From Sideroxydans sp. (GTDB lineage Bacteria; Pseudomonadota; Gammaproteobacteria; Burkholderiales; Gallionellaceae): a stretch of 64,000 nt of DNA. The stretch lies in contig JAQTTU010000013.1 of assembly GCA_028710605.1 (NCBI GenBank), positions 1 to 64,000 on the forward strand. The letters are read 5' to 3'. The translations under genes were made by a program, and so were the position numbers. Positions 3-17,864 of this stretch are shown here, one piece after another; position 1 is the first letter of the stretch, and each line of letters opens with the position of its first letter. The notes below the pieces were generated by a model that was not told the origin of the DNA, ran no database searches, and worked only from the letters and a program-made list of their open reading frames with translations.

Positions 3-260
3 CACATCTACGCCTCGGCGGGCGGCTTGCAGGAAGCGCTCGACGGCTACCAAGGTAACGGCCTGTTCACCCACGCGCTGCTCGACAGCATGAACACAGC
101 CAACACCACGGACAGCAACGGCGACAAGCAAGTGAGCGTGATGGAACTGGGGGCGCGGGCGAAGCAAGAAACGACGGCTATCTCCACCAAACTGGGTTCA
201 CCGCAGTCGCCTAACATCATCAACTTCGGCAAGGATAATGCGTTGTTTGGGGTGAAGTAA
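3..260 (+). CDS. C-terminal end of a caspase-family (peptidase C14) protein, cut by window edge
   Basis: Only the last 85 codons are inside the window; the reading frame is open from base 3 and ends in TAA at 258-260. The sequence (HIYASAGGLQEALDGYQGNG) is almost the same as the C-terminal end of the next gene at both DNA and protein level, so this is the end of a tandem paralogue. In the C14 fold this part follows the catalytic Cys strand and carries the ASAG...EAL substrate-pocket segment. It contains an acidic loop DSNGDKQVSVME that resembles an EF-hand loop with Gly-6 lost. The upstream propeller and catalytic residues cannot be judged here. Confidence 0.85.
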   Translation, partial: HIYASAGGLQEALDGYQGNGLFTHALLDSMNTANTTDSNGDKQVSVMELGARAKQETTAISTKLGSPQSPNIINFGKDNALFGVK

Positions 261-312
261 GGCAAGGCGAGCGGATTGAATCGGCATCTCGCTAAATGTT
301 TTTCAGAAAGGA

Positions 313-3300
313 ATGGCGATGTTCAAATGGTCGATGAAAGCGTTGTTGGCGGCGATGTTTTTCGTCGGCATGCTAAATGGGGCGATGGCCGCCGATGAGG
401 AGATGGTGAAAATATTTGTGCAGTTGGGGCATAGGGGCGATGTAGCTTCAGTCGCCTTGTCCCCCGACGGGCGCACCCTCGTTTCTGGTAGTGGTGACAG
501 TACCCTCAAGCTGTGGGATGTCGCCAGCGGGCGCGAAATACGTACGCTGTACGGACATGAAAGGGGGGTTCAGTCGGTCGCCTTTTCCCCCGACGGGCGC
601 ACTGTGGTTTCGGGCAGTATCGATGAAACGCTAAAGTTATGGGATGTCGCCACTGGGCACGAGTTGCGCACGCTGAAAGGACATGAGGGGAATGTCAATT
701 CAGTCGCTTTTTCGCCTGATGGGCGAACGATTCTTTCTACTGGAGATACTGACAACACACTCAGGTTGTGGGATGTCGCAAGCGGACGAGCGCTGCGCAC
801 TATAAATGCGAGTAAATATGGCGTAGTAAACGTTGCCGTTTTTTCTCCCGATGGCAAGACGCTCGTTTCTGATAGTGGGAACGGTACTATCACTCTGCGG
901 AATGTTGCCAATGGCCAAGTCATACGCAAAATTCAAGGCCCCTTGTCTGGTGTCGCTTCCTTAGCCTTTGCTCCCGATGGGCGTACCCTTGTATCAGGTC
1001 AGCACGACAGTAGCCTCAAGTTGTGGGATGTCGCCAGCGGACATGAGGTGCGCACACTGTACGGACATAGTGACATGGTGACTTCTGTCGCCTTTTCTCC
1101 CGACGGGCGCACCCTTGTTTCGGGTAGTAAGGATCAAACCATCAAGCTGTGGGACGTTGCCAATGGACAGGAGTTGAGATCACTGAGTGGCCATACTGAA
1201 TGGGTGAATTCCGTCAGTTTTCTCCCCGATGGACGCACCGTCGTTTCAGGCAGTTGGGATAACACCATCAAACTGTGGGATGTCGCTAGTGGAAAAGAGT
1301 TGCGAACACTAAGTGGGCAAATTCCTAGTGTGGTGTCAGTCAACCTTCTCGGCGATGGACGAACCCTTGGTTTTCGCGGGTTGTATGAAGGCTACAAATT
1401 TTGGGACATCACCAACGGTCATTATCTGGGCGAGCCACCTTATGCCGCTCCAGAAGTAGATAAATCACCATCGAGTAGCGACATCATTGCTTTCAGGCAA
1501 TGGAATGCCGCAATGAGACAAAATCTTCTTTCGCTGATCGGGGCAGATGAATCCGCCCAATCCCCCGACGGTAGCATTCTTGCAACGTGCACGGATAGAA
1601 ATGAAAAAACCATCAAGTTGTGGAATGTCGCCAGTGGGCAAGTTCTGCATACACTAAGCGGTCATAGCAATAAAGCGATTTCAGTTGCTTTTTCCCCTGA
1701 CGGACGCACCCTCGCATCGGGCAGCTATGACTACACCATCAAGCTGTGGGATGTCGCCAGTGGACGTGAGCTGCGCACACTGAGTGGTCTTTCTTACTTT
1801 CCAAGGTCAGTTGTATTTTCCCCCGATGGACGCGCGCTCATTTCTCGAAATACGGGGATTAATGAAAAACCTGCCCTTACGCTTTGGGATGTCAATAGCG
1901 GCCAAAAATTACGGACTTTTAACGAGAAGCAGGACATTGACTTTGAGTTTATCTTTTCTTCCGACGTGAGCACCCTTGCAACGCGCATGGGTGGAATGGG
2001 AGAAGCCGTCAAGTTGTGGGGTGTCGGCAATGGTCAAGAATTGCATACATTGACCACGCATGAGGACGAGTGGCAAACCCCAATCGCCTTTTCCCCCGAT
2101 GGGCGCGTCATCGTTATTCATTCCGTGATAGGTGATGATTTTGCACACCGGATCAATCTCACAAAATTCTTGGATGTCGCCAGTGGTCGCGAATTGTACT
2201 CATTGGGTGAGGGTTATAAATTTGGCATGTTCTCTCCAAATGGTCATACCTTTGTTGCCTCCCAACGGATAAGCAATGGTGAAAAGCTCGGTGATATTGA
2301 TGTCCCTAAATTGTTCGACGTGAGCAGTGGGCGTGAGCTATATACGCTGAACGAAATTTCTTCAAGGCCACTCGCATTTTCTCCCGACGGGCGTTACCTT
2401 GTTACGACTGAAGACGACAATAGCCTCAAATTATGGGATGTCACCAGCGGTAAAAAATTGCATACATTGAAAGGACATAGTGATGGTGTGTCATCAGTCG
2501 TCTTTTCAAAAAACGGGCAACAAATCATTTCAGGTGGCAATGACGGCACCGTCCGGCTATGGAATACCGCAACAGGGAACCTCCAACTTACGATGGTGAG
2601 TTTCAAGGATGGCGAGTGGATCGCCACCACCCCCGAGGGTTACTACAATTCTTCGGAAAAAGGCGGTGACTGGCTGAACGTCCGCCTCGGCAACAAAGTA
2701 CAAGGCATCAACCAGTTCTACGACGTGTTCTACCGTCCCGACATCGTCGAAGCCAAGCTGCGCGGCGAAGATATTTCCGGGTTGATTACCTTGACCATTG
2801 ACGACGCGATGCGAAGCCCGCCGCCCGAAGTCGCCTTCACCACCGTGCCCGCCACCTCCTCCGCCAGCAAAGAAAAAGTCTGCTACAAAATCACCAGCAC
2901 CGGCGGCGGTATCGGCGAAGTGCGTTTGTTCCAGAACGGCAAGCTGGTGAAGTCGGATGGTTTCTACCGCGAAGCCGTGGCCAAGCGCGAAGACAAGATG
3001 ATGCTGGCGAGTGCCAATGGCGAAGGCGTTTATCGCTCGATGCGCTCGCTCAAAATGGTCAAGGGCGAAAGTCCGATTCAGGTTGCCAAGAGCAAGGGCG
3101 ATGTGGTGGAAGAGTGCCAGGAGATCGAGGCCATCCCCGGCGAGAACGAGTTGGGTGTGACGGCATTCAATGCGCAAAACACCGTGCAAAGCAGCATGGG
3201 CAGCAGCACCTTCACTTCCACCCGCCAGCCGGAAGCGCCGAATCTATATGTGCTGGCCATCGGCATTGATGAATTTTCCGACTCCTCGGTGAACCTGAAA

Positions 3301-3987
3301 TACGCGGCCAAGGATGCGCTGGATTTCCAGAAGCTGATGCAGGAAAAATCCGGCACCTTGTTCGGCAGCGACAACATCCACGTCACTTCCCTCTCCAACG
3401 CCCAAGCCAGCAAGCAAGGCATCTTGAGCAATATCGACGAGATGGCGGGCAAGGTGAAACCGTGGGACAGCTTCATCCTGTTCGTGGCCTCGCACGGCGT
3501 GATGTTCGGCACGCAGTATTACCTGGTGTCCTCCAGTTTCGACGGCACAGCGGACGAACACAACCTGATCGGCTCGAACGAGATCGTCGAACTGTCGAAA
3601 AAGATTCGCGCCCTGAATCAGCTCTACATCTTCGATACCTGCCATGCCGGTGGAGTCGATAACATCGTGGGCGGTTTGTACGACGCGCGCATGAGTGTGC
3701 TGGCGAAAAAAATGGGGCTGCACATCTACGCTTCGGCGGGCGGCTTGCAGGAAGCGCTGGACGGTTATCAGGGCAACGGCTTGTTCACCCATACCCTGCT
3801 GACCAGCATGAACGACGCGAACCAGACGGACTTCAACCACGACGGCAAAGTGAGCGTGATGGAACTGGGCAAATCGGCGCGCGACATGACCAACGCCATC
3901 TCCACCAAAATCGGCCACCCGCAAACCCCGACCATGATCCACTTCGGCAAGGATGTGGCGGTGTTTGCGACGGGAGCGGCTCGTTGA
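313..3987 (+). CDS. Exported WD40-repeat caspase-family protein (1224 aa)
   Basis: ATG at 313 follows an AGAAAGGA ribosome-binding site. The N-terminus is a Sec signal peptide (hydrophobic residues 8-25, probable cleavage at AMA-AD). Residues about 40-760 hold 16 recognisable WD40 blades with the SPDGRTLVSGS...LKLWDVASG signature, enough for two propellers. A conserved linker (GEWIATTPEGYYNSSE, then FYRPDIV) follows, and a peptidase C14 domain occupies about residues 980-1215. The dyad is His1061 (VASHG) and Cys1110 (DTCHAGG). An EF-hand-like loop, DFNHDGKVSVME, lies near the C-terminus. WD40-caspases are known bacterial proteins whose substrates are mostly unknown; the signal peptide places this one outside the cytoplasm. 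The blades repeat at DNA level, so copy number may vary between strains. Confidence 0.9.
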   Translation: MAMFKWSMKALLAAMFFVGMLNGAMAADEEMVKIFVQLGHRGDVASVALSPDGRTLVSGSGDSTLKLWDVASGREIRTLYGHERGVQSVAFSPDGRTVVSGSIDETLKLWDVATGHELRTLKGHEGNVNSVAFSPDGRTILSTGDTDNTLRLWDVASGRALRTINASKYGVVNVAVFSPDGKTLVSDSGNGTITLRNVANGQVIRKIQGPLSGVASLAFAPDGRTLVSGQHDSSLKLWDVASGHEVRTLYGHSDMVTSVAFSPDGRTLVSGSKDQTIKLWDVANGQELRSLSGHTEWVNSVSFLPDGRTVVSGSWDNTIKLWDVASGKELRTLSGQIPSVVSVNLLGDGRTLGFRGLYEGYKFWDITNGHYLGEPPYAAPEVDKSPSSSDIIAFRQWNAAMRQNLLSLIGADESAQSPDGSILATCTDRNEKTIKLWNVASGQVLHTLSGHSNKAISVAFSPDGRTLASGSYDYTIKLWDVASGRELRTLSGLSYFPRSVVFSPDGRALISRNTGINEKPALTLWDVNSGQKLRTFNEKQDIDFEFIFSSDVSTLATRMGGMGEAVKLWGVGNGQELHTLTTHEDEWQTPIAFSPDGRVIVIHSVIGDDFAHRINLTKFLDVASGRELYSLGEGYKFGMFSPNGHTFVASQRISNGEKLGDIDVPKLFDVSSGRELYTLNEISSRPLAFSPDGRYLVTTEDDNSLKLWDVTSGKKLHTLKGHSDGVSSVVFSKNGQQIISGGNDGTVRLWNTATGNLQLTMVSFKDGEWIATTPEGYYNSSEKGGDWLNVRLGNKVQGINQFYDVFYRPDIVEAKLRGEDISGLITLTIDDAMRSPPPEVAFTTVPATSSASKEKVCYKITSTGGGIGEVRLFQNGKLVKSDGFYREAVAKREDKMMLASANGEGVYRSMRSLKMVKGESPIQVAKSKGDVVEECQEIEAIPGENELGVTAFNAQNTVQSSMGSSTFTSTRQPEAPNLYVLAIGIDEFSDSSVNLKYAAKDALDFQKLMQEKSGTLFGSDNIHVTSLSNAQASKQGILSNIDEMAGKVKPWDSFILFVASHGVMFGTQYYLVSSSFDGTADEHNLIGSNEIVELSKKIRALNQLYIFDTCHAGGVDNIVGGLYDARMSVLAKKMGLHIYASAGGLQEALDGYQGNGLFTHTLLTSMNDANQTDFNHDGKVSVMELGKSARDMTNAISTKIGHPQTPTMIHFGKDVAVFATGAAR

Positions 3988-4395: not shown

Positions 4396-5295
4396 ATGAG
4401 ATATTCAATCAGCGCAGCCATCGCCGGTTTTTGTTTTTTATTGGCGATATTCCCGGCACACGCCAAATTATATTTAGTGCCGCCACCTCAATTGGAGGAC
4501 ATCAGTTTGCAGCAAAGCGAGTTGGGTGCGCAGGCGACTATTAAACTTTCTACGCCGGTGCGTTTCGTGAAATATACGATGCCCAGCAAATATTCCAAGT
4601 ATCTGGAAATTTACTACGAACATGCAGACGATTCTGTCCCGGTAAATGCTTGGTCTGACATGGAAACCATATTGACTGAAAAGACAAAACTAACGCCCCT
4701 AATATTGGTGAATACACGCGATCAGGCTACTCATCCCCGACTGTCGGTGACATTCGACGGTGAACTGGAGGCCAGCGTAAAAGCGGGGGCGGATGGCCGC
4801 AGCTTTGTGATTACTTTTCATATTCCCCCTGCCCTGTTTGCAGATGGTTGCAGGTATCCAGGTTCGTATGTTCAAGCGCCCGGCTGGATATGCGATGAAC
4901 CGGTAGAGGGCTGGATGGTCACAGCGGTTGGTACTGCCGAAAAAGAAGAGTTTGCCGGCGATGTATCCAAACAGACCGAAGAGGCAGCGGTAAGGGCCAG
5001 ACAGTCTATGGGTGAAAATATGGATGCCACGACGCAACGCGTAGCGCAAGACTACTTACAACAAACTAAACCTGACGATACATCCACGCGCGACGCGGTG
5101 GCTATGCTGGAAGCTGGGGAGCAGCATATACAAATTAAACAAGTTGCTGCCGCCGATGCATTCGGTGCTTATTCAGTTTCGATAAGCCATGTTCCCCGCA
5201 GAGTCCGCGAGATGGTTTTGCAAAAGAGCAAAGTCATCAAAAGCGCGGTCGGCCCCAATGGGACGGTTTATGTTCTGGTGGGAATGAATGAATAG
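4396..5295 (+). CDS. Secreted protein of unknown function (299 aa)
   Basis: The start ATG at 4396 lies one base after the stop of the 12-codon ORF and is preceded by GGGGAGGA. The signal peptide (MRYSISAAIAGFCFLLAIFPAHA, cleavage after AHA) predicts export. The mature protein begins with a Pro/Leu-rich stretch and shows mixed beta-type sequence (residues 35-150), a CRYPGSYVQAPGWIC segment with two cysteines that may form a disulfide, a helical acidic stretch (about 180-230) and a C-terminal beta-rich end. I do not recognise the family. It sits between two WD40-caspase genes in the same direction, so a role linked to those exported proteins is possible but unproven. Confidence 0.75.
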   Translation: MRYSISAAIAGFCFLLAIFPAHAKLYLVPPPQLEDISLQQSELGAQATIKLSTPVRFVKYTMPSKYSKYLEIYYEHADDSVPVNAWSDMETILTEKTKLTPLILVNTRDQATHPRLSVTFDGELEASVKAGADGRSFVITFHIPPALFADGCRYPGSYVQAPGWICDEPVEGWMVTAVGTAEKEEFAGDVSKQTEEAAVRARQSMGENMDATTQRVAQDYLQQTKPDDTSTRDAVAMLEAGEQHIQIKQVAAADAFGAYSVSISHVPRRVREMVLQKSKVIKSAVGPNGTVYVLVGMNE

Positions 5296-5355: not shown

Positions 5356-8300
5356 ATGACGATGTTCAAGGGGATGATGAAGGTGCTGTTGGTGGAGATG
5401 TGTTTGGTTGGCATGGTGGGTATTGCTATAGCTGCCGACAATGACAAAGCGGAAATTTTTGTACAAGCGGGACATGCCACTGGTGTCGAGTCCGTAGCGT
5501 ATTCGCCTGATGGGAAAACTGTAGTTACAGCTGGTTATGACAATACAGTCAAATTATGGGATGCGGCGAGCGGACGCGAGTTGCGCACACTTAGCGGGCT
5601 TAATGATGCGGTTTTCTCCCCTGACGGCCTCATCATCGCCTCAGCCAGCAATGACAATATGATCAAGCTCTGGGAAGCGGCTAGTGGGCGAGAATTGCGC
5701 ACGCTGAGCGGGCATAAACTCGGTGTCATTTCCATCGCCTTCTCTCCCGATGGACAGACCCTGGTTTCGGGCAGTAACGATAAGACTTTAAGGCTGTGGG
5801 ATGTTTCCAGCGGCAGAGAACTGCGCTCGTTGCTCGGGCATGGTGACGTAGTAGAGAAAGTGGCATTTTCTCCGGATGGTCGCTCCGTTGTCTCTGGCAG
5901 TGATGATAAAACCCTCAAACTATGGGATGTGGCCAGCGGGCGCGAACTGCAAACATTCTCGGGGCATAGTGACAATGTCTTTGCAGTGGCCTTCTCCCCG
6001 GATGGTCGCAATGTTATTTCGGGAAGCAGGGATGGCAACATCAAACTATGGGATGTGACCAAAGACAAGGAGCTGGGGAGCTGGGAGGATGAAGGAAATC
6101 ATTCGATTGTTTCCGTGGCTTACTCTCCAGATGGTCGCACCGTTGCTTCGATAAGTGGCGAAATCGTCACATTGCGGGATGTACGCGGCATGAACATTTT
6201 CAAGACGGTTCGATTGCCTCAATACAGCCACCCCATAGGTTTGGCCTTTTCGCCCGATAGCCGCACTCTCGTCGTAGGGAGTTCGCACACCCCGATTTTT
6301 CTGGATGCAGCCAGCGGCAATGAGTTGTCCAGACTGACTGGGCACAGCGCTGCAATTGATCCTATTGCTGTATCCCCGGATGGCCGCATCATCGTCACCG
6401 GCATCCACAAAGTGATCCACGTCTGGGATGCAGTCTCCGGGCGAGAGTTGCGCACCTTGAGTGGACACGGCGATCTGGTGCGCGCCTTGGCCTTCTCCCC
6501 GGATGGCCGCACCATCGCTTCTGGCAGCCAAGATAACACCATAAAACTTTGGGATGTATCCAGCGGGCGAGAGTTGCACACACTCAGTGGCCACCTCAAT
6601 GTTGTTGCAAACGTAACCTTTTCCCCGGATGGCCGCACCCTGGCTTCGTCAAGTTACGACCAGTCCGTTAGACTCTGGGATACGGCCACCGGTCGCGCGC
6701 TAAGTACTCAAGTTCGCTTCTCCATGGGTAGTGCTGTCGTTTTTTCGCCGGATAGCCGCACCCTGGCAGCCGTCAGTTACGACAATAGTGAAAATTTACG
6801 GTTGCTCGATGTAAGCAGCGGGCGCGAATTGCTTACTTTGGTCGGGCAACCCAATGCGAGCATTTTATCTGTGGCCTTTTCCCCTGATGGACGCACCATT
6901 GCTACCGGAAGCCGGGATAACGCAGTAAGGCTGTGGGATGCTTCCAGTGGCAGAAATTTGAAAACGCTGAACGAAATCGATATTGATAAAGGCGATGCAC
7001 GGGTTCGTGCGGTTGCCTTCTCCCCGGATGGTCGCACTCTGGTCTCGGGTGGCATGGATTACAAACTTAAACTCTGGGATACCGCCAGCGGCGAGTTGTT
7101 GCGCAGCTGGAAAGGGCACGGCGAGTCTTTTGGCGATATTGCATTTACACCCGGCGGGAAAGAAATCATTTCCGGGAACTGGGATAACTCCGTGCGCAAG
7201 TGGGATGCGGCAACCGGTAAGGAGATCGCCCAATACGTCAGCTTCGACGACGGTGAATGGGTCACCATCACTCCCGAAGGTTACTTCGACGCTTCCGAGC
7301 ACGGCGACAAACATCTCAATATCCGCATAGGCAACAACGTATCCGGCATCGACCAATACCGCGAGTCGTTCTACCGCCCCGATCTGGTGAAGCTGGCGTT
7401 GTCGGGCGGGTCGATCAAGGAGTTCCGCAATATCGCCACGGTGAAATCTGCGCCCTCGGTGCGGATTGTCAACACAGCGGAAACCACCAGTGAACCCGAA
7501 GCCAGCGTGACGTTGAAGCTCACCGATATGGGCGGCGGCATCGGCGATGTGCGGCTGTATCTGAACGGCAGCGCGGTGGTGCTGGACAATTCGCGGGCGC
7601 TGAAACGAGTGGCGCAGGAAGATGCCAATTCCACCACGCGCACTTACACCCTCAAGCTGGTCAACGGCAAGAACAGCCTGCGCGCCATCGCGTTTAACGC
7701 GGACAATTCCATGCAGAGCACGGATGCGTTGTATGAAATAACCGCTGCGTTCAAGGTGGTCGGCAAGCCTTCGCTGCATGCCGTTATCGTGGGCATCAAC
7801 GAGTTCAAGAATCCGAAACTCCAGCTCAAATATCCGGTGGCGGATGCGCAGTTGTTTGCGGATACGCTGCGCAAATCGGCCTCGGGGTTGTTTGAAAAAG
7901 TGAACATCAAGATGCTCACCGGCAAAGAGGAAACCACCCGCGAGAGCATCAAGAACGTGCTGACGGCAATGCGCACGCTGAACCCGGACGACTTGTTCGT
8001 GTTTTACGTGGCCAGCCACGGCACGGTGGATGACGGCGAATATTTTCTCATCACTTCCAATGTCGGCTCGACTTCCACCGAGCGTCTGAAGGCCGATTCG
8101 CTGCCGCAGAACGAAATGAAAGAACTGATCGCCAACATCCCCACCACCAAAAAAGTGATCGTGCTGGATACCTGCAATTCCGGCGCGCTGGGCGATGCCT
8201 TGCAGACCGCCATGCTCACGCGCGGCATGAGCGAAGACACCGCGATCAAGATTCTTTCACGCGCGGTGGGTTCGACTATTCTTTCCGCCTCGACTTCGAC

Positions 8301-8719: not shown

Positions 8720-10444
8720 ATGAAACAACAAAACTTGATCTGCGCCGCTTTGCTGGCGCTATCCATACTGTCCGCACTTCCAGCAAATGCCCAAGCCGAA
8801 CCCAGTTACGAACAAGGCATGGCCGCGATAAACGGCAAGGACTACGGGACGGCCTACCGGATTTTCAAGGCGCTGGCGGACAAGGGCGATCCTTCCTCGC
8901 GGAATGCGATGGGGGTGCTTTATCAGAACGGGATGGGGGTAGAAGTGAATCCTGTCGAAGCGGCGAAATGGTTCAAGCTCGCGGCCAAACAGGGCAATGC
9001 CAAGGCGCAGGGCAATCTGGGCGCGATGTATTTCTTCGGCGATGGCGTAGCCAAAGACGTAGTGGAGTCGGCGAGGCTGTTGCAACTCTCTGCCGAGCAA
9101 GGATATTCGGGCGCGCAGGCGAATCTGGGCGTTTTGTACCGTGACGGCATCGGCGTGAAACAGGATTACGCAGAAGCGGCGAAGTGGCTCAAGCGCGCGG
9201 CAGAGCAAGGCGAAGCGCCCGCACAATTGAATCTCGCCACGTTCTACGAGGATGGCGTGGGCGTGCCCAAGGACATCCAATTGGCTTTCTACTGGTATCG
9301 GCAGGCCGCCGAACAGGGCGATGTGAAAGCGCAGGTTTTTCTGGGCAACCAATATGCCGCCGGTGATCTGGTGGCGCGCGATTTGCCGGAAGCGGCCAAG
9401 TGGTATCGGCTGGCCGCAGCGCAAGGCAGCGCGGCAGCCGAACACGGATTGGCCGTGCTTTACTACAACGGCGGCGGTGTCGAGAAGAGCCTGTCCGAAT
9501 TCGTGCGATTGACAAAAAGCGCGGCGGAAAAAGGCTTCGTTAAGGCGCAATACAATCTCGGCGCGATGTATGTGCATGCGGATGGTTTGCCCAAGGATTA
9601 TGCGCAGGCGCTGGTCTGGTTTACGCGCGCCGCCGAGCAAGGCCACAGCGGCGCGCAGTTCAATCTCGGGCAGTTGTACGGGGAAGGTTACGGAACGGCG
9701 AAGGACTACGCCCAAGCCGCGAAATGGTTCGCAATTGCCGCCGCAGCGGGCGAGGCCGATGCGCAAAACAAGCTGGGCTTTTACTATTCCAAAGGGCTGG
9801 GCGTGAAGCAGAACGATGCGGAAGCCATCAAGTGGTTCAAGCTCGCGGCGGCGCAGGGACTTCTTCAGGCGCAGGCCAATCTGGGCATGGTGTATGAGGA
9901 TGGCTACGGTGTCACGCCGGATATTGCGGAGGCGATAAAGTGGTACCAGCCCGCCGCCGAAAAAGGCGACACGTCCGCCCAGAACAGGCTGGGCGATATT
10001 TTCAACGAAGGAGAAAGTGTCCCGCAGGATTACGCGGAAGCGAACAAATGGTATCGCATGGCCGCAGAGCAAGGCGACGACCGGGGGCAACACATGCTGG
10101 GCGCGCACTACCTTTTGGGCTTGGGATTTAGCAAGGACTTGGCCGCCGCGTTGAAGTGGGAACAACTTTCCGCCGCACAAGGAAATGACTCGGCGGAAAA
10201 CGACCTCGGCTACATGTACCTGAACGGGGAAGGCGTGGTGCAAAGTTATACCGAAGCGCTGAAATGGTTCGGGCTGGCAGCAGCACACGGCAATGTGCTT
10301 GCGCAAAGAGCCATGGCCTCGATGTACGAAAAAGGCATCGGCATCAACCAAAATGCAAAACAAGCGATCAAGTGGTATCGCATGGCGGCGAAACAAGGCG
10401 ATGCCGAGTCGAAGACGGCGCTCAAGAGGCTGGGAGCGAAGTAA
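8720..10444 (+). CDS. Secreted Sel1-repeat (SLR) protein, 574 aa
   Basis: ATG at 8720 has a clear AAGGAG site 9 bases upstream; the in-frame TTG at 8711 has none. The signal peptide ends at ANAQA (about residue 25). The rest is roughly 15 Sel1-like repeats of about 36 residues with the signature A-x-A-Q-x-x-L-G-x-x-Y-x-x-G-x-G-V...D-x-x-x-A-x-K-W. Such solenoids are protein-protein interaction scaffolds, often in the periplasm. The gene lies inside the WD40-caspase cluster on the same strand, so it may be a partner or adaptor for those proteins; that link rests on position only. The long ORF on the opposite strand is a codon-bias shadow. Confidence 0.9.
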   Translation: MKQQNLICAALLALSILSALPANAQAEPSYEQGMAAINGKDYGTAYRIFKALADKGDPSSRNAMGVLYQNGMGVEVNPVEAAKWFKLAAKQGNAKAQGNLGAMYFFGDGVAKDVVESARLLQLSAEQGYSGAQANLGVLYRDGIGVKQDYAEAAKWLKRAAEQGEAPAQLNLATFYEDGVGVPKDIQLAFYWYRQAAEQGDVKAQVFLGNQYAAGDLVARDLPEAAKWYRLAAAQGSAAAEHGLAVLYYNGGGVEKSLSEFVRLTKSAAEKGFVKAQYNLGAMYVHADGLPKDYAQALVWFTRAAEQGHSGAQFNLGQLYGEGYGTAKDYAQAAKWFAIAAAAGEADAQNKLGFYYSKGLGVKQNDAEAIKWFKLAAAQGLLQAQANLGMVYEDGYGVTPDIAEAIKWYQPAAEKGDTSAQNRLGDIFNEGESVPQDYAEANKWYRMAAEQGDDRGQHMLGAHYLLGLGFSKDLAAALKWEQLSAAQGNDSAENDLGYMYLNGEGVVQSYTEALKWFGLAAAHGNVLAQRAMASMYEKGIGINQNAKQAIKWYRMAAKQGDAESKTALKRLGAK

Positions 10445-10532: not shown

Positions 10533-13500
10533 ATGCTTATAGCGCATCGCATCACTAAATTCATGGCAACCCTGTTTGCCGCAGCCATTCTCGTCATCCC
10601 TGCAAGCGGCAAGGCTGCGCAGGAAATCCGGCCTGAGGTGGTTGGGCAGGCGGGAGTAAATGGATGGGGTATGGTGGTTTCTGCAAGTCGGCGCTTAGTG
10701 GCAATGCTGGACGATAATGGTGCGGAGGTATTCGATCTTTCAACGGGACTTTTGCAGCGCAAGGTAATTGCCGACAGGGTGAATGTAGTAGCAATTAGCG
10801 ATGATGACCGCTATTTAGCCATAGGCAAAAAATACGGTCTTGAAGTGATTGATTTAACTACGGGCGAACGCCTTATTTCGCTGGATGCAAATGTCTGGGG
10901 TATTAGGTTTAGCAGCGATGGGCATTGGCTGGCTGCGCTTACCGCAACAGGCGTTTTCCAGATACCGACAACGCTGCGGAAAACTGAACCCCAGTTCACG
11001 CTTAATGCGTCCAGCGTTACACAACTGGGTGGGCGCGGAGTTGGAATAATTTGCGTAGGCCAAGAAGTTTCCCTGAGTAACGATGGGCGGCATCTGGTGT
11101 GTAATACCTTTGTAAATGATGCCCAGCGCTGGGCATTGATAGATATGTCCACGGGTAAAACCCGTATCGGCCAGAACGAAGTATTTGCTGCTGCCGTTAC
11201 CCCTGATGGACATAGCGTACTGACAATTATGGATGGCGGGAGACGCGTCCGCTTATACGATGTCGCCGAGCCGGGCAAAGTTCAGGAGGCTCTATTGTTG
11301 CCTGACCCGGAAAGCCAAAATGTGACTGGGGGCGCAGTTCAACCTATCGCCTTTCGTGGCAATAATGAGGCAGTTGTGATCGACGGCCATAAGTTGTACC
11401 GGATAAATCTCAATCCCTTGCGTTCCACAAAAATCGACTCTTCGCTGCTTCAGTCGTATTTCGGCTATCAAACACCCTTTGGCATGGATCCCAGCGGTCG
11501 CATTCTGTTGGCATCACGTTACGAAGATATTCGAAATAACCGATTTATCTCCGGTATGTCACCCGTATTCTTACTGCTTGATATAGATGCGCTGGATCAA
11601 CCGCCGTTTCGCGCAATATACGGGACAACAAATTGGAGTGGAATGCCACATGATGGCCGCTTCATCGCACAGCCAACTCCGCAAGGATTGCTGTTGGCGC
11701 AACGCTTCCGTGACCGGGCAAGGGTGACCAATCTGACCACCGGCACAGTGGTGTACGACTACGCAGGCTTGCGCAGCATCGGTGAGAAACTCGGTGTGAT
11801 GGCGATGGTTGATCCTGCTGGCCGCAAAGCCTATTTTGGGCGAGATACGGGAATGCAGGATGAAAAAGCAGCCCGCAAACGATTGGAGAAAAAACCCGGA
11901 GATTGGGCAAGCTTTGAAGAAATGGATGTAGAACTGAAGAAAATCAGGGAGCACGTTCTTGTGGATTTGACTACGGGTCGTCAAATTCCGCTCCCGACTG
12001 AAATCAATTCCATAGACGCGACCTTCTCCTCACAGGGAAATTATCTGCTCATGCTTGGGAAAGACGATTCTTCAGCGCTGGTATCCACGGCTGATGGGAA
12101 AGTTCTCCATCATTGGGGCGAATCCATGCCCAGAGCAGTCGAGCGATGCAACTTCTCCGATGATGAGAAGCGCCTGCATTGCGAAGGGAGGGTAGTGTCT
12201 ATTCCCGATGGAAAGTTGTTGCTGGATGCGACTGCTTCAAACCAAAACCAGAATGGAGATTGGCTCCGGTGGATGGAGCGCACCGCCAAGATGAGCCCCG
12301 ACGGGCGCTGGCTGGCTTATTACGAAAACGAAGAACACAAAGCGCACGTTCTGTCAGTACAAACAGGCAAAGAAGTGATGGTGGTTAAGGTTGACTATTG
12401 GTACACCGGAAGCTTTTCCTGGTCGCCCGACAGCCGCCTTATCTTGCCCAACAAATACGAAAACCCGAACATCACAATAGCCCGGTTTACGGAACCCAAC
12501 AAAGTCGAAATGACGACGCGCCAGTTAGGGATGTGTACCAAGCCCATCTTGACGGGTCAAGGAACCATCGTGTGCTTGAATGAAGATGGTATGGTCGGGA
12601 ATCTTGATGCGATCCAAATCTACGACGAAACGACAGGACAACTCAAAAGAGGATTTCCTGAAACGACACCCAGTGATTATGTGATTTCACGGGACGGACA
12701 CCAAATATTTTTGCGTACCGGATTTGCCGGAAACAAAGGGCAAACCATTTTGGATACCCAAACTGGCGAAACCATCGCCAATATTTCGACTGGTGCCGAC
12801 GACTGGGTCATCACCTTGCCCGAAGGCTACTACACCGCGCCGCGCGGTGTGAACAAACTCATCGCCATCCGCAAAGGTAACCACGCCTATTCCTTCGACG
12901 AATTCGATTTAACACTCAACCGTCCCGACCTCGTGCGTGAACGTCTCGGTGCCCCCAAGGCATTGGTCAAAGCCCTCAAGCGCGCGCAAGCCAAGCGCGT
13001 GCAGCGCTTCGGTGCGATTGACGAAGCCATGCGTCCCACAGTGGAAATTGATAGCCGCAGCCTGCCGCTGCTGACCAATGACGCACAGATCAAAGTCGCT
13101 TTCAACGCCGCCGCAGTCAACGGCGCAAAGCTCACCCGCGCGCAAGTGTATGTGAACGGCGTGCCCACGCTGGGGCGCGATGGCGTGGCCGTTACACCGG
13201 ATGCGAACGGCAATGTCAGCCAGCAATTACCTGTGGAACTCACTCCCGGCAGCAACCGCATTCAGGTTTCGGTGTTCGATGACAAAGGCATCGAGTCGCT
13301 GCGCGACACCGGCGTGGTCGCCCGCAAGGCCGCGCCTGCGCCGATCACGCGCTACCTGCTGGCGGTAGGCGTGTCGCAATATGCCGACTCATCGCTCAAC
13401 CTCGACTACGCGGCCAAGGATGCCACTGACCTTGCTGCCGCCCTGCAACGCAGCAGCCCCGGTATAGAACGCACTGTGGTGAAGACCCTGACCGATGCCG

Positions 13501-14240
13501 AAGTCACCCGCGACAAGTTGCGCGAAGCGCGGCAATTCTTCGCCGATGCCAAACCGCAGGATCAGGCCATCGTGTTCATCGCCGGGCACGGTCTGCTCGA
13601 CGACAAGGACGACTACTACTTCGCCGGATACGATGTCGATGCCGCCAACCCCGCCGCCAAAGGCGTGCCGATAACCGACATCGAAGACCTGTTCGCCGAC
13701 ACCAAGGCGCGCGCTCGTTTGCTGCTGATGGATAGCTGCCACTCCGGCGAAGTGGATCACGACATGGAACAGAAGCTGGCCGCCCTGCCCCAAGGCGTGA
13801 GCGGCACGCGCGCGCTGAAACTGAAAACCAGCACGCCTAAACCGGCCAGCGGCGAACCACTGGATGCCACGCAAACCATCGCCTACGTCACCGAGCTGTT
13901 CGCCGACCTGCGGCGCGGCGTGGGCGCGACCGCACTGGCTTCCGCCAGCGGTATCGAGCTGGCGCTGGAATCCTCGCAATACAAGAACGGCCTGTTCACC
14001 TCCGCCATGCTGGAAGCGCTGAATGACCGCAGCACCGACACCGACAACACCCGCTCCATCGAAATGACCGAACTGCGCGACCGCGTCACCGCCCGCGTGC
14101 GCACCTTGAGCAACGGCACGCAAACGCCCAGCACGCGCGTGGAAAACTACGACGAGAATTTGCTGATGAGCGCGTGGGCTGAAACGAAGGAAGAGCCGGT
14201 GAAAGCGGCGGCCAAGGGCAAAGGGAAAAAGAAGAAATGA
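10533..14240 (+). CDS. Exported beta-propeller/caspase-family protein (1235 aa)
   Basis: The frame is open further upstream into the Sel1 gene, but the ATG at 10533 has GGGAG a few bases upstream and starts a signal peptide (MATLFAAAILVIPASGKAA). Residues about 40-760 are degenerate WD40-like blades (SPDGRWLAYY, SDDDRYLAIG). A linker (DDWVITLPEGYYTAPRG, FDLTLNRPDLV) and an Ig-like segment follow, then the C14 domain with His1019 (IAGHG) and Cys1069 (DSCHSGE). Together with the next gene it forms a subfamily different from the two upstream copies. The EF-hand-like position is degenerate (DTDNTRSIEMTE). The tail is highly basic (KGKGKKKK), an oddity not shared by the paralogues. Confidence 0.9.
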   Translation: MLIAHRITKFMATLFAAAILVIPASGKAAQEIRPEVVGQAGVNGWGMVVSASRRLVAMLDDNGAEVFDLSTGLLQRKVIADRVNVVAISDDDRYLAIGKKYGLEVIDLTTGERLISLDANVWGIRFSSDGHWLAALTATGVFQIPTTLRKTEPQFTLNASSVTQLGGRGVGIICVGQEVSLSNDGRHLVCNTFVNDAQRWALIDMSTGKTRIGQNEVFAAAVTPDGHSVLTIMDGGRRVRLYDVAEPGKVQEALLLPDPESQNVTGGAVQPIAFRGNNEAVVIDGHKLYRINLNPLRSTKIDSSLLQSYFGYQTPFGMDPSGRILLASRYEDIRNNRFISGMSPVFLLLDIDALDQPPFRAIYGTTNWSGMPHDGRFIAQPTPQGLLLAQRFRDRARVTNLTTGTVVYDYAGLRSIGEKLGVMAMVDPAGRKAYFGRDTGMQDEKAARKRLEKKPGDWASFEEMDVELKKIREHVLVDLTTGRQIPLPTEINSIDATFSSQGNYLLMLGKDDSSALVSTADGKVLHHWGESMPRAVERCNFSDDEKRLHCEGRVVSIPDGKLLLDATASNQNQNGDWLRWMERTAKMSPDGRWLAYYENEEHKAHVLSVQTGKEVMVVKVDYWYTGSFSWSPDSRLILPNKYENPNITIARFTEPNKVEMTTRQLGMCTKPILTGQGTIVCLNEDGMVGNLDAIQIYDETTGQLKRGFPETTPSDYVISRDGHQIFLRTGFAGNKGQTILDTQTGETIANISTGADDWVITLPEGYYTAPRGVNKLIAIRKGNHAYSFDEFDLTLNRPDLVRERLGAPKALVKALKRAQAKRVQRFGAIDEAMRPTVEIDSRSLPLLTNDAQIKVAFNAAAVNGAKLTRAQVYVNGVPTLGRDGVAVTPDANGNVSQQLPVELTPGSNRIQVSVFDDKGIESLRDTGVVARKAAPAPITRYLLAVGVSQYADSSLNLDYAAKDATDLAAALQRSSPGIERTVVKTLTDAEVTRDKLREARQFFADAKPQDQAIVFIAGHGLLDDKDDYYFAGYDVDAANPAAKGVPITDIEDLFADTKARARLLLMDSCHSGEVDHDMEQKLAALPQGVSGTRALKLKTSTPKPASGEPLDATQTIAYVTELFADLRRGVGATALASASGIELALESSQYKNGLFTSAMLEALNDRSTDTDNTRSIEMTELRDRVTARVRTLSNGTQTPSTRVENYDENLLMSAWAETKEEPVKAAAKGKGKKKK

Positions 14241-14384: not shown

Positions 14385-17300
14385 ATGAATTTCTTCGCCC
14401 TGACTGCTGTATTTTTTATTTCCTTCGCCACGCTGGCGCAAGCTGCGCCCTCCGCGCCAGCCTCTCCCGAAGTGGTTTTGCAGAATGTGCGCGGGTATGG
14501 AATGGCGACGGCGAGTGCGGATGGGCGGCGCTTGGCGATGTTGGGAGATGGCGAGTTGATCCTGTGGGATGTGCCGTCCGGTTTAAAAATTAAATCGATG
14601 CCACTGACTTCGACTAACTTTAATCAAAATGGTGGCGATGGCGCATGCGTATTTGAACGCATTACCTTCCTGGCGGGTGACCAGAAAGTTGCGGTAGGCG
14701 GCACGTGTGGCAATGGGAATCAATTAGATCAGGTTGTTGATATTGAAAACGGCCAAACGATTCATTATGGTCATTACACTCAGGGCAAGGGAGGTTACTC
14801 GCCTGATGGAGAGTTGCTGGTGTCGCAAGACAATGAGGGGCCTGAAAAAAGCGCTATTAAATTGACTCGGGTGAGCGATGGCAAGCTGATTAAATATCAG
14901 CCCGGCGTATTAAATAGTGATGAGTTTGCGGCCAAAGTAATTTTTCTGGATATGAAAACCGTGGCCGTTTGTGGTGAGACGGGTCACAGCTGGAGAGTGC
15001 ATGACCTGAATAGCGGGAAAGAACTTTTTACAGTTCCGAATGCCGAGTGTTCACTACGCCCCTCTATCAGCCAAGATAGGCAATTCGTGATTTACCAAAC
15101 TTGGGACACTTGGGACAAAGCTTACATCCCCATGCTATTGAAAGTAGAAGGAGGGGTAAGAACCAAGTTGCTACCGCAACACAATAACGATGCGCTCGAA
15201 GCAACTTCAGCCCGTTTTATTGAAGGGGGGCATCAAGTCGAACTGCGCGGCATCAACACGCAAACGAAATACCCTTACGTGGCAACCATGGATATTGCCA
15301 CCCTGCAAACCGTTTCATTTGTCAGCGCAGACAAGGCGCTGCCTGAAGACATAGGCGAGACTTATCCGCTGCTGGATGGCAAGTGGGCGGTGAGTAATAC
15401 GCCGAACAGCGGTTTCGCATTATGGGATGCAGACAAGGCCAAACTACTGCGCACCTTTGGCTACAAGCTGAAAAATTTTTCAAGAAGCGTGTGGAGTCCC
15501 GACAGCAAATTGTTGGCGATTGCGAAAGAGGCAAGTGAATATCGACCAAAAATGAATCCACTGGTTTCGATTCAATTTCAGATATGGGATATGTCCACGG
15601 GCAGGCTGAAGCACAACATTCAATTCCAAACTGAAAATATTCCCACGGATATTTCTTTTTCTCCCGACAACAGTCAATTGCTTTGGACCAATGCCAATAA
15701 AGGGATAACGACCTTCGATCTCAAGTCGGGGCGCTTCGGCACAATGTTTGCTGACAAGCATGTTGATCATTGCCAAATTTCCCCTGATGGGAAATGGCTG
15801 GTTGCACAAAACAGCCATCAAATGGAAGAAAAAATAGGGGAAATAACTGTCTACGAATATCCATCGGGGCGAGAAGCGGCCAATTTTGAAGGGGATCGTT
15901 TACAGTTTTCTAGGGACGGGTCAAAAGCGCTCGTCCTAATTGCTAATACCCATGAGCATCAATGGTCTAGGGATGGGATGAAATTGCTCGAAAACGAAGC
16001 GGGCAGCGTTTACCCTGTCCTCGTTGGGAAATGGAAATTCGGCGAGAAGTTATTCACAACTACGGGAGCAATTTCGACCAATCCAGATTTCACCTTGTGG
16101 GCCGATTTTGAGTATCGATTTGGTGATACGAATTTCTATGTGTGCGGGAAAGATTTTTATGCATGCGGAAAAAAGCACACCCGTATTTTGCGACTTCAAA
16201 ACAGCACGGCCAAGCCGATATTCAGCCCCAATGGCGAGTTTATGCTGCTCCCGGACGAGAACTATATTCAAACGCTCTATTCCACGAATTTCAAAGGAAA
16301 TAAGCTGCAAGCCCTCAATAAGCTGCATGCTTTTGATGGCGGCGAAATTGATGAGTCATATCTCTGGTCGCCCGACAACAACTTCCTTGCCGAAATAAGA
16401 GAGGGAGCCATACTCCTGCGCAACGGCAATACCGGCGAGCCCATCGCCGATCTGATCGCGCTCGATCAATCCGAAAGCGTCGCCGTGTTGCCCAGCGGCG
16501 AATACCTCGCCACCAAGGGCGCGATGCGCGCCGTGGGCTTCCGCGTCGGCATGACCCCCTACACCTTCGAGCAGTTCGACCTCAAATACAACCGCCCGGA
16601 TGTGGTGCTCAAAGCCTTGGGCAAAGCGCCGCAGCGGCTGATCGACGCGGCGCGACGCGCTTACGAAAAACGCTTGGCGCGCGCCGGGTTCACCGAAGCC
16701 ATGCTGGCCACCGATTTCCATTTGCCGGAAGTGGCGGTCAAGCGCGAGGGCTTGCCGGTCTCGACTTCGTCGCCGACGGTCACGTTGAACATCAGCGCCA
16801 AGGACAGTCAGGTCACGCTGGATCGTTTACTGGTGACAGTGAACGATGTGCCGTTCGACGGGCGCATCGCGGGCATAGACCTCAAGGCCGCGAACAGCAA
16901 GCAGGCGAACAGGACGGTGGAAGTGCCGATACTCTCCGGCAGCAACCGCATCCAGGCGTCGGTGCTCAACGCGCAGGGCGTGGAGTCGTACCGCGAGACA
17001 GTGGAAGTGCGCGGTGATATGCCCGCCGTGCCGGGCAAGGTTTACGCGCTGACCATAGGCGTGTCGCAGTACCAGAACGCCGAATACAACCTGCGTTACG
17101 CCGCCAAGGATGCGAAAGATGTGGGCGCGCTGTTCGGCAAAATGCCGCGCAGTGCGGGCGCAACCATCACCCCGGTGCTCGATACCGACGCTACGCGAAC
17201 CGCAATTCTGGATGCGAAAAAAGCGTTGCTCGAAGCCGGGCCGAACGACGAGGTGGTGGTGTTCCTCGCCGGGCACGGCATGCTCGACGACAAGCTCGAC

Positions 17301-17864
17301 TATTACTTCGCCACCACCGATATCGACTTCGACCACCCCGCGACCAGCGGGCTTTCTTACGACGACATCGAAAACCTGCTCGACGGCGTGAAGGCAAGGC
17401 GCAAGCTGTTGCTGATGGATACCTGCAATTCCGGCGAGCTGGACAAGGGCGATATGGAAACCACCACGCTGGCGCAGAACGACGCGCCCAACGCAAAAAT
17501 ACAAGTCCGCGCCGTCGGCTCGCGCAGCCTGAGAAGGAACCCCGCAGCACTCGGCCAAAGCGACCTGTCCGCCTTCCTCGCCGACCTGTTCGCCGACACC
17601 CGGCGCGGCTCGGGCGCGGTCGCCATTTCTTCGGCGGGCGGCGCGGAATACGCGTTGGAATCGGACGAATGGAACAACGGCGTGTTCACTTATGCATTAC
17701 TGGAAGGCTTGAAATCAGGCAGCGCAGACAAGAACAAAGACGGCGCGGTCACCGCTTCCGAGTTGCGCGATACGGTGCAGACCCGCGTACAAACCCTGAC
17801 CCAAGGAAAACAAACCCCGACTTCGCGCAGGGAAAATCTGGCGGTGGATTTTGCGGTGTATTGA
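14385..17864 (+). CDS. Exported beta-propeller/caspase-family protein (1159 aa)
   Basis: ATG at 14385 has AGAAAGGA upstream. The signal peptide is MNFFALTAVFFISFATLAQA. Residues about 30-690 carry weak propeller blades (SPDSKLLAIA, SPDNSQLLW). The linker YNRPDVVLKALGKAPQRL matches the gene at 10533, showing close paralogy, and an Ig-like segment precedes the C14 domain. The catalytic pair is His964 (LAGHG) and Cys1014 (DTCNSGELD). A canonical EF-hand-type loop, DKNKDGAVTASE, lies near the C-terminus and would bind Ca2+ if folded as expected. It is the last gene of the caspase series; a tRNA-Val gene on the other strand follows. Confidence 0.9.
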   Translation: MNFFALTAVFFISFATLAQAAPSAPASPEVVLQNVRGYGMATASADGRRLAMLGDGELILWDVPSGLKIKSMPLTSTNFNQNGGDGACVFERITFLAGDQKVAVGGTCGNGNQLDQVVDIENGQTIHYGHYTQGKGGYSPDGELLVSQDNEGPEKSAIKLTRVSDGKLIKYQPGVLNSDEFAAKVIFLDMKTVAVCGETGHSWRVHDLNSGKELFTVPNAECSLRPSISQDRQFVIYQTWDTWDKAYIPMLLKVEGGVRTKLLPQHNNDALEATSARFIEGGHQVELRGINTQTKYPYVATMDIATLQTVSFVSADKALPEDIGETYPLLDGKWAVSNTPNSGFALWDADKAKLLRTFGYKLKNFSRSVWSPDSKLLAIAKEASEYRPKMNPLVSIQFQIWDMSTGRLKHNIQFQTENIPTDISFSPDNSQLLWTNANKGITTFDLKSGRFGTMFADKHVDHCQISPDGKWLVAQNSHQMEEKIGEITVYEYPSGREAANFEGDRLQFSRDGSKALVLIANTHEHQWSRDGMKLLENEAGSVYPVLVGKWKFGEKLFTTTGAISTNPDFTLWADFEYRFGDTNFYVCGKDFYACGKKHTRILRLQNSTAKPIFSPNGEFMLLPDENYIQTLYSTNFKGNKLQALNKLHAFDGGEIDESYLWSPDNNFLAEIREGAILLRNGNTGEPIADLIALDQSESVAVLPSGEYLATKGAMRAVGFRVGMTPYTFEQFDLKYNRPDVVLKALGKAPQRLIDAARRAYEKRLARAGFTEAMLATDFHLPEVAVKREGLPVSTSSPTVTLNISAKDSQVTLDRLLVTVNDVPFDGRIAGIDLKAANSKQANRTVEVPILSGSNRIQASVLNAQGVESYRETVEVRGDMPAVPGKVYALTIGVSQYQNAEYNLRYAAKDAKDVGALFGKMPRSAGATITPVLDTDATRTAILDAKKALLEAGPNDEVVVFLAGHGMLDDKLDYYFATTDIDFDHPATSGLSYDDIENLLDGVKARRKLLLMDTCNSGELDKGDMETTTLAQNDAPNAKIQVRAVGSRSLRRNPAALGQSDLSAFLADLFADTRRGSGAVAISSAGGAEYALESDEWNNGVFTYALLEGLKSGSADKNKDGAVTASELRDTVQTRVQTLTQGKQTPTSRRENLAVDFAVY

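What the first reader, a model, noticed from the sequence alone, without database searches (positions are those of the whole stretch)
3..17864. Tandem array of five exported WD40-caspase paralogues
Four complete genes and one tail encode signal peptide, propeller and C14 caspase domains. All four complete copies keep His and Cys. Two subfamilies are visible (313/5356 with crisp WD40 blades; 10533/14385 with degenerate blades and an Ig-like segment). Bacterial caspase-like proteins are usually discussed as cytoplasmic defence or cell-death factors; a secreted set with separately varying propellers suggests a family of extracytoplasmic proteases or sensors with changing recognition surfaces.
Basis: partly seen in the sequence, partly recalled or inferred. 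Interest (0 to 1): 0.7.

Follow-up and report, generated by a model that had tools for sequence, protein, structure and literature searches.

The report
Exported sensor-protease array with diversified propellers
This bacterium carries a row of eight genes for caspase-like proteases that appear to be exported, four of them with nearly the same protease attached to different ring-shaped recognition domains, which looks like a small receptor repertoire acting outside the cytoplasm.

Summary
The window has four complete genes and one tail for propeller-caspase (WD40-C14) proteins with signal peptides. It starts at a contig end; the row continues on two more contigs, giving eight such genes in about 45 kb (inferred) between tatD and tRNA-Val/gltX. 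In 12 of 17 congeners with both genes on one contig, that gap is 0.3-0.7 kb.

Four genes (A, C, D, E=313) share one protease module (94-98% identical over 178 aa) behind propellers only 53-61% identical. Gene F (5356) has their signal peptide and a similar propeller, but a distant protease. In the five crisp genes, blade variability concentrates in six top-face positions, which include the four under positive selection in fungal allorecognition NLRs. A Saprospiraceae tandem pair shows the same.

Best reading: modular extracytoplasmic receptor-proteases, one effector with many recognition surfaces. Signal, target and outcome are unknown; no dN/dS above 1, no population data, no experiment. Relatives with this architecture mostly look exported too, and repetitive WD40 proteins with variable hotspots are known; the shared-effector array is what is new.

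The parts
1..127 (.). First 127 bases of the contig, identical to one end of contig C11: k-mer overlap where the assembly broke at a repeated protease module
3..260 (+). C-terminal tail (85 codons) of the preceding paralogue (most likely gene D of contig C11)
313..3987 (+). Gene E (313): propeller-caspase protein with signal peptide, 1224 aa, 16 blade hits
313..390 (+). Signal peptide of gene E (about 26 codons, end set by eye)
2605..3984 (+). C-terminal module of E: GYY cap, Ig-like segment, C14 protease (H1061, C1110); AlphaFold pLDDT 87, pTM 0.88
4396..5295 (+). Secreted protein without a Pfam hit of its own, LPP20-like: 29% identical over 151 aa to a Pfam-LPP20 protein upstream of gene A on contig C14
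5356..8535 (+). Gene F (5356): signal peptide and blades like A/C/D/E, 14 blade hits, but a different protease lineage
7246..8532 (+). C-terminal module of F (H888, C940)
8720..10444 (+). Sel1-repeat protein with signal-like N-terminus, within the row
10533..14240 (+). Gene G (10533): signal peptide, degenerate propeller, Ig-like segment, C14 (H1019, C1069)
14385..17864 (+). Gene H (14385): signal peptide, degenerate propeller, Ig-like segment, C14 (H964, C1014)
17976..18050 (-). tRNA-Val(cac), right edge of the variable locus; also beside gltX in the 8 congeners fetched there
18167..19573 (+). gltX (name recalled), core gene that flanks the locus

Best explanation
The locus encodes a set of modular receptor-proteases exported from the cytoplasm. 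Each has a signal peptide, propeller blades (14-16 hits in the crisp genes, as for two seven-bladed WD40 propellers), a short GYY cap, an Ig-like segment and a C14 (metacaspase-type) cysteine protease. The propellers bind a proteinaceous ligand outside the cytoplasm; binding relieves inhibition of, or brings together, the protease behind them, which cuts an envelope or extracellular target. One protease module is kept almost constant in A, C, D and E while the recognition surfaces differ, and propellers and proteases are exchanged as modules. SHOWN from sequence: architecture, intact dyad, export signals (by rule), constant effector with divergent sensors, variability concentrated on the top face, module exchange in F, island position. 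INFERRED: ligand binding by the variable face, activation by binding, the target and the outcome (defence, competitor or kin recognition, or envelope stress).
For: Constant effector: the first 178 aa of the C-modules of A/C/D/E are 167-174 of 178 identical in the six pairs, propellers 53-61%. C-module pN is 0.01-0.04 with pS 0.28-0.38; propellers pN 0.24-0.30, pS 0.59-0.69. BLAST blocks of at least 85% identity start within about 11 bp of the propeller/protease junction for the C-D, A-D and E-D pairs. Two copies are identical at both contig breaks (127 bp each side).

Exchange: F's first 78 nt are 71-82% identical to A/C/D/E, while pairs with B, G or H give 26-38%; yet its protease lies outside the 13-row clade (100/100) that holds A and E.

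Variable face: among 59 blades of A, C, D, E, F the six most variable of 41 columns are 5, 23, 7, 4, 3, 25 (entropy 2.5-3.9; all others below 2.0). They lie in the d-a and b-c loops or at the start of strand a (DSSP). Columns 5/7 and 23/25 flank the conserved V6 and D24, just as codons 7/9 and 25/27 flank 8 and 26 in Podospora NWD genes. These four columns all rank in the top 8 in A, C, D, E and F and in 6 of 10 relatives examined, both Saprospiraceae genes among them. Export rule: 8 of 8 here. Dyad: 45 of 45.
Against: No dN/dS above 1: 0.6 in variable columns against 0.14 in the framework, with synonymous sites near saturation, so relaxed constraint is not excluded. In 4 of 10 relatives (L068, L113, L140, L149) the four columns are not all in the top 8. 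The comparison set meant as a control, non-repetitive Syntrophaceae blades, is not a clean negative: the columns rank 6, 3, 9 and 4 there, below columns 26 and 17 and without a clear gap; and two less repetitive genes (L073, L107) do have all four in the top 8. So top-face variability is partly a general WD40 property, and it is already reported for highly repetitive prokaryotic WD40 proteins (Hu 2017, passage). Only this genome of 34 of the genus has the array, so variation between strains could not be tested. PADLOC gave partial hits only.
Confidence: 0.48

Rival explanations
1. Envelope or extracellular housekeeping proteases: the propellers are docking scaffolds for matrix or envelope proteins, and their top-face residues vary because copies specialise on different substrates or are under weak constraint. 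No recognition of non-self.
For: Relatives of this architecture occur in many phyla. Of 82 genomes of the order with a C-module match, 62 showed one match (counts are lower bounds, the tool scored at most 4 candidates, and many matches lack propellers). dN/dS in variable columns is below 1. Top-face variability also appears in some non-repetitive relatives. An exopolysaccharide gene (YjbH) and cluster lie in the same window (46.6-64 kb).
Against: Charged residues outside the top face stay conserved (R16, K28, E37, R39 are found in about 71-74% of blades), while no top-face variable column has one residue above about 36%. One protease in four copies, and presence in 1 of 34 genomes of the genus, are unusual for housekeeping.
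Confidence: 0.26
2. Secreted weapons: the proteins leave the cell and cleave targets on competing or prey cells, the propellers being receptor-binding parts, and the small secreted genes between them being immunity or accessory proteins.
For: Signal peptides; repertoire of recognition domains on one effector; exported genes inside the row (4396, 8720). Asplund-Samuelsson 2012 raised a fratricidal role for extracellular metacaspases (passage).
Against: G and H are 144 bp apart, which leaves no room for a cognate gene between them; ORFs under 150-180 aa were not examined elsewhere. Some relatives look like lipoproteins by the rule (8 of 59), which argues for envelope attachment.
Confidence: 0.13
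3. Programmed death by proteolysis of the cell's own envelope: the array is a periplasmic counterpart of cytoplasmic NLR or EACC1-caspase suicide systems, fired by phage or envelope damage.
For: Caspase effector plus variable sensor. The same tatD/tRNA-Val gap holds genes matching Wadjet JetA, JetB and JetD in congener G008. Six other C14 loci have a gene similar to the LPP20/DUF4384-like gene upstream of A.
Against: No NTPase or adaptor among the genes scanned (not all C11 genes were scanned). NCBIfam caspase_w_EACC1 matches stay below its cut-off (42-95 against 140 bits). No phage-borne relative found.
Confidence: 0.2
4. Assembly artefact: the copies, or their linkage, are a product of a broken assembly.
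For: The row spans three contigs; the identical core itself was not found in the assembly.
Against: Four complete, mutually divergent genes lie within one contig here and two (A, B) in C14. Shared 127-mers and the tatD-gltX neighbourhood of relatives agree on the order C14-C11-C30.
Confidence: 0.04

Closest known systems
Podospora NWD/HNWD NLRs (HET-E, HET-D, HET-R)
   Same: WD40 repeats with variability at the same four positions of each blade (codons 7, 9, 25, 27; passages), a gene family with diversified repeats
   Different: Those have NACHT and, in part, HET domains, show positive selection and concerted evolution of repeats (passages) and act inside cells; here there is a signal peptide, the effector is a C-terminal C14 protease, no NTPase was found, and neither dN/dS above 1 nor clear recent blade homogenisation was found
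Highly repetitive prokaryotic WD40 proteins (Hu 2017)
   Same: Conserved framework with variable hotspot positions (passage); best PDB match of F by E-value is 2ymu, a highly repetitive propeller
   Different: The main text has no occurrence of 'signal peptide' or 'secret', and mentions caspases as neighbours of cyanobacterial WD40 genes; an array on one shared protease is not described in the passages seen
Prokaryotic metacaspases/orthocaspases with WD40 (Asplund-Samuelsson 2012)
   Same: C14 domain, WD40 in 10.9% of 671; N-terminal helices that may be signal peptides; FGE-sulfatase fusions as in gene B (passages)
   Different: That survey reports at most three metacaspases in a predicted operon; here eight genes in one row, four with a near-identical protease module
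EACC1-caspase and other NTP-dependent conflict systems (Kaur 2020)
   Same: Constant caspase component with a diverse partner domain (passages)
   Different: NCBIfam score below cut-off; no NTPase among the genes scanned; an EACC1 gene was not sought
DGR-diversified antigen sensors (PNAS 2024, PMC10907252)
   Same: Sets of diversified putative sensors tied to peptidase effectors, some predicted periplasmic or secreted (passages)
   Different: Variation there is in C-type lectin domains written by a reverse transcriptase; no such element was sought here

Membership tests
Peptidase family C14 (caspase-like) | Pfam PF00656 over its cut-off | tested here: met
   all four complete window genes, 51-64 bits against 21.4; G also scores as the related CHAT family, 31.8 against 24
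Peptidase family C14 (caspase-like) | His/Cys dyad in GHG or SHG and D[ST]C motifs | tested here: met
   (45 of 45), aligned with metacaspases
Peptidase family C14 (caspase-like) | caspase fold | tested here: met
   AlphaFold model of the E module matches 3bij, MALT1 and caspases, best Foldseek E 1.5e-11, TM 0.60-0.70 by target for the caspase-only chains, rmsd 4-8; dyad distance not measured
Peptidase family C14 (caspase-like) | proteolytic activity | not testable with these tools
   needs assay
Twin seven-bladed WD40 propeller | 14 WD40 blades | tested here: met
   A 14, C 14, D 15, E 16, F 14 blade hits, some weak. G, H, B: degenerate, 2-7 weak hits
Twin seven-bladed WD40 propeller | two closed rings | tested here: inconclusive
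   F modelled as successive four-strand blades, pTM 0.70; Foldseek lists twin-propeller proteins and Apaf-1; ring closure not inspected
Exported protein (Sec signal) | N-terminal signal peptide | tested here: met
   home-made rule 8 of 8; the rule also fires on 227 of 552 control ORFs in loose mode and 155 of 552 in strict mode, against 50 and 39 of 59 relatives
Fungal-type NLR (STAND) | NACHT/NB-ARC NTPase | tested here: not met
   none for G and H (full lists) nor in the four C-modules; for E and F only the best 25 of 60-62 families were shown, all propeller families
Fungal-type NLR (STAND) | variable top-face positions in repeated blades | tested here: met
   positions from Paoletti 2007 passages
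Fungal-type NLR (STAND) | positive selection at these positions | tested here: inconclusive
   dN/dS 0.6 with synonymous saturation; no strain data, no site model
EACC1-associated caspase (NF047832) | NCBIfam cut-off 140 bits | tested here: not met
   42.1-95.2 bits in the five propeller-caspase genes scanned
PADLOC defence caspase | full-length match to the PADLOC caspase model | tested here: not met
   matches over at most the first 158 of 453 positions, E 1.8e-5 to 3.8e-12

The most novel reading that the evidence does not exclude
The array is an innate immune or allorecognition repertoire that works outside the cytoplasm without any NTPase: exported WD40-caspase receptors whose top-face residues recognise variable proteins of phages, rivals or kin, with a single shared protease as effector, a periplasmic counterpart of fungal NWD receptors found in Proteobacteria and Bacteroidota.
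Probability: 0.2. Interest if true: 0.88.

Novelty: new variant of a known kind. Interest (0 to 1): 0.56.

Why it matters
Here one protease is joined to several recognition domains and, by its signal peptides, exported, with variation at the positions that fungi use for non-self recognition. If binding turns the protease on, it would be a receptor repertoire outside the cytoplasm that needs no NTPase, and the ligand could be sought with the propellers as bait. Even if the function is ordinary, the sequence shows a bacterial family that evolves by exchange of sensor and effector modules.

Tried and rejected
Recent concerted evolution of blades as in Podospora: not supported for A, C, D, E, F, but the two estimates disagree. 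Against the codon usage of each gene's own C-terminal part, third-base identity is not raised (observed 0.34-0.49, expected 0.43-0.55; A 0.49 against 0.48). Against the pooled codon usage of the blades it is raised (0.435 within genes, 0.395 between, expected 0.302). Single close pairs exist (A 213/255, 94% framework identity). The five relatives tested all show some excess (0.05 to 0.16).

Positive selection by simple counting: not shown; site models were not run.

Phage or plasmid origin: no relative in viral contigs (close relatives only) or phages; 13 plasmid records with distant caspase proteins, the top-ranked at 23% identity.

C11 as a separate circle: possible from the k-mer ends alone; disfavoured by tatD-gltX synteny, not excluded.

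The array as a genus trait: rejected. Of 34 genomes of the genus (this one included), 4 have any match; the three others have one C14 gene each in an open frame of 464-520 aa. The nearest relative, G017 (86% complete), has unrelated genes beside both tatD and gltX, on two contigs that end there.

Shared partner: genes similar to the LPP20/DUF4384-like gene upstream of A (its own Pfam scores are just below cut-off) turned up in 7 loci, 6 distinct. Suggestive only; no base rate was computed.

Naming the organism: not achieved. G213 and G342 have the contig lengths of Methylobacillus flagellatus L1B and of a betaproteobacterial MAG, so the order includes Methylobacillus.
Full report
WHAT IS THERE. 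The window is bases 1-64000 of contig C30 of a 3.36 Mb genome in 35 contigs. It starts at the contig end. Four complete genes, E 313-3987, F 5356-8535, G 10533-14240 and H 14385-17864, and an 85-codon tail (3-260) encode propeller-caspase proteins. All four keep His and Cys: E H1061/C1110, F H888/C940, G H1019/C1069, H H964/C1014. Two other genes with signal-like N-termini lie between them: 4396-5295, with no Pfam hit of its own but 29% identical to a Pfam-LPP20 protein upstream of gene A on contig C14, and a Sel1-repeat protein at 8720-10444.

THE ROW IS LONGER. A protein search of the genome finds more copies on two contigs. C14 carries A (1091 aa, complete), B (1563 aa, WD40, C14 and two FGE-sulfatase stretches; C14, the rest) and C (cut by the contig end). 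C11 (9364 bp) carries D (cut) and a tail. The ends of C14 and C11 share exactly 127 bases, and the other end of C11 shares exactly 127 bases with the start of the window. That is what a k-mer assembler leaves at a repeat longer than its k-mer (assembler behaviour recalled). By comparison with E, about 0.58 kb lies between the two breaks; with the 127-base overlaps the identical stretch would be about 0.84 kb, covering the protease core. It was not found in the assembly and was not rebuilt.

ORDER AND PLACE. tatD (name recalled) lies on C14 upstream of the row and gltX on C30 after it. Among congeners, 17 have both on one contig (my count): the gap is 0.31-0.73 kb in 12 (G421, G005, G007, G014, G422, G024, G423, G018, G006, G016, G427, G009), about 2 kb in 2 (G004, G176) and 34-61 kb in 3 (G008, G023, G011). 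In 7 more the two genes are on different contigs (G017, G003, G428, G002, G020, G021, G015). tRNA-Val(cac) lies beside gltX in the 8 congeners fetched there and here. So the row fills about 45 kb (summed over contigs and the inferred gaps) of a gap that is short in most congeners, and the order C14-C11-C30 is the simplest. In G008 the same gap holds genes matching Wadjet JetA, JetB and JetD. In G023 and G011 the genes by eye look like ordinary chromosome, so rearrangement is likely there. The nearest relative, G017, has unrelated genes beside both. With a 45-row profile, 4 of 34 genomes of the genus have any match, and only this one has the propeller form by frame length.

ONE PROTEASE, SEVERAL SENSORS. 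After the propellers each protein has a C-terminal module (GYY cap, Ig-like segment, C14 protease). For A, C, D, E, the first 178 aa of it are identical at 167-174 positions in the six pairs, while the propellers are 53-61% identical; A against E over the whole module is 82%. C and D are cut, so their proteases beyond that point are known only as an identical, uncollected stretch and the tails. By Nei-Gojobori counts the proximal module has pN 0.010-0.039 and pS 0.28-0.38; the propellers pN 0.24-0.30 and pS 0.59-0.69; the signal peptide (26 codons, noisy) pS 0.36-0.64; the distal module of A against E pN 0.17, pS 0.47. Propeller alignment between repeats is not strictly orthologous, so those values are inflated. 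DNA blocks of at least 85% identity start within about 11 bp of the module for the C-D, A-D and E-D pairs; in A-C and C-E they reach 102 and 65 bp further upstream; A-E gave no block under the filter used.

MODULE EXCHANGE. F has the A/C/D/E signal peptide (78 nt 71-82% identical; pairs with B, G and H give 26-38%) but its protease falls outside the 13-row clade (100/100) that holds A, E, a gammaproteobacterial and several deltaproteobacterial MAGs and two Methylobacillus-type sequences. The row holds four protease groups: A/C/D/E, F, G and H (one 11-row clade, not sisters), and B. Of the relatives kept by the collection scan, the A/E module is closest to MAGs assigned to Gamma- and Deltaproteobacteria (49-61% identity), and not to its array mates.

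VARIABLE TOP FACE. A blade model made from these genes gave 59 good blades of 73 in A, C, D, E, F (14 dropped for gaps). The most variable columns of 41 are 5, 23, 7, 4, 3, 25 (entropy 3.89, 3.72, 3.58, 3.17, 2.82, 2.53); no other column exceeds 1.94. In the predicted structure of F they fall in the d-a loop, the start of strand a, and the b-c turn, that is, the top face; the bottom turns are conserved. Paoletti 2007 (passages) found codons 7, 9, 25 and 27 under strong positive selection in Podospora NWD repeats, flanking conserved 8 and 26. Anchored on V6 and D24, these are our 5, 7, 23 and 25. Per gene, all four rank in the top 8 of 41 in A, C, D, E, F; the chance for one gene is 7e-4, although these genes are related and the model was made from them. 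Two tandem genes of a Saprospiraceae MAG (L153) rank them in the top 5.

LIMITS OF THAT. I looked at 15 chosen loci; 10 genes had enough blades. All four columns are in the top 8 in 6 of them (L153 twice, L148, L093, L107, L073) and not in 4 (L068, L113, L140, L149). L107 and L073 have blades only 38% alike, so the pattern is not confined to crisp genes. A Syntrophaceae set of non-repetitive blades (26 blades, 43% alike), meant as a control, ranks columns 5, 7, 23, 25 at 6, 3, 9 and 4, below columns 26 and 17, with no gap to the rest. What sets the crisp genes apart is the sharp gap between variable and fixed columns, not the list alone.

SELECTION. dN/dS is 0.6 in the variable columns and 0.14 in the framework, with synonymous sites near saturation. 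So positive selection is not shown. Relaxed constraint alone is a weaker account, since charged residues elsewhere stay conserved, but it is not excluded.

EXPORT. With a home-made rule, all 8 genes here carry a signal peptide. Of 59 relatives with this architecture, 50 pass when any start within 60 codons is allowed and 39 with the first start only; control ORFs from the same loci give 227 and 155 of 552. Eight of the 59 look like lipoproteins by the rule. Export is therefore a likely family trait, seen in Proteobacteria, Bacteroidota and Planctomycetota among others (record titles).

STRUCTURE. The module of E was modelled with 45 sequences (pLDDT 87, pTM 0.88; a stretch at 122-160 below 50); the top PDB matches are 3bij (a Geobacter protein), MALT1 and caspases. 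Sequence search finds metacaspases, with His and Cys aligned. F at full length gave pLDDT 82, pTM 0.70; top matches are 2ymu, twin-propeller proteins and Apaf-1. The end of H's module has an EF-hand-like loop below cut-off, and the same D-x-N-x-D-G pattern can be read in E; metacaspases are often calcium-dependent (recalled), so calcium is worth testing.

DISTRIBUTION. In 399 genomes of the order, 82 have a match of the C-terminal profile at E 1e-10, many without propellers; 62 of the 82 show one match, counts being lower bounds. G137, in the same family, has several C14 genes on one contig and a neighbour 39% identical to a C11 gene. A collection scan kept the best 80 of 266 relatives.

LITERATURE (open-access library only; passages read, not whole papers). 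WD40 in 10.9% of 671 prokaryotic metacaspases, up to three in an operon, possible signal peptides, many predicted outside the cytoplasm (PMC3501461). Highly repetitive WD40 proteins with variable hotspots (PMC5587647). NLRs in fungi (PMC4986451; PMC1805685; PMC2873952). Caspase conflict systems (PMC7159879). DUF4384 among accessory domains of cyanobacterial orthocaspases (PMC8283722). DGR-diversified sensors (PMC10907252). The listings showed no title or abstract start that describes an exported WD40-caspase array of this kind; that is a limited search.

READING. Sequence shows modular sensor-proteases with export signals, one common effector in four genes and diversified top faces. That binding controls the protease, and what it is for, is inference (0.48 for the receptor-protease reading, 0.2 for immunity or allorecognition).

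Noticed in passing
L031:12712-17403 (contig C14): Gene B joins signal peptide, WD40, C14 protease and two FGE-sulfatase stretches in one 1563-aa protein.
   Followed up: partly
L162-L163 (G008, tatD to gltX gap): Congener carries JetA, JetB and JetD (Wadjet) matches in the same tRNA-Val locus that holds the array here.
   Followed up: partly
L031:3554-8316 (contig C14): FecR, lytic transglycosylase, LPP20/DUF4384-like and LPP20 genes run opposite to and just upstream of gene A; genes similar to the DUF4384-like one also lie near C14 genes in six distinct relative loci.
   Followed up: partly
16464-17861 (end of gene H module): EF-hand-like loop below Pfam cut-off inside the protease module; a similar pattern can be read in gene E.
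   Followed up: no
L034:5312-6109 (contig C10): A separate C14 gene in a 265-aa open frame without propellers, on another contig.
   Followed up: no
19862-20785 and 20851-23550: By eye, a deacetylase-like gene next to and divergent from an acyl-CoA synthetase-acetyltransferase fusion; could be a paired protein acetylation switch.
   Followed up: no
24188-41680: Nickel hydrogenase, Nuo51-like and molybdopterin oxidoreductase genes (Pfam), with a BRO-N gene and an LprI-like gene among them.
   Followed up: no
[quoted passage not shown]
   Followed up: no
L153:4187-11078 (Saprospiraceae MAG): Tandem pair of 14-blade caspase genes in Bacteroidota; in the first, two adjacent blades recur as a near-copy later in the gene.
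   Followed up: partly
L032:7064-7816 (contig C11): A 250-aa protein made of two similar halves (320 bp, 89% identity), no Pfam family over cut-off.
   Followed up: no
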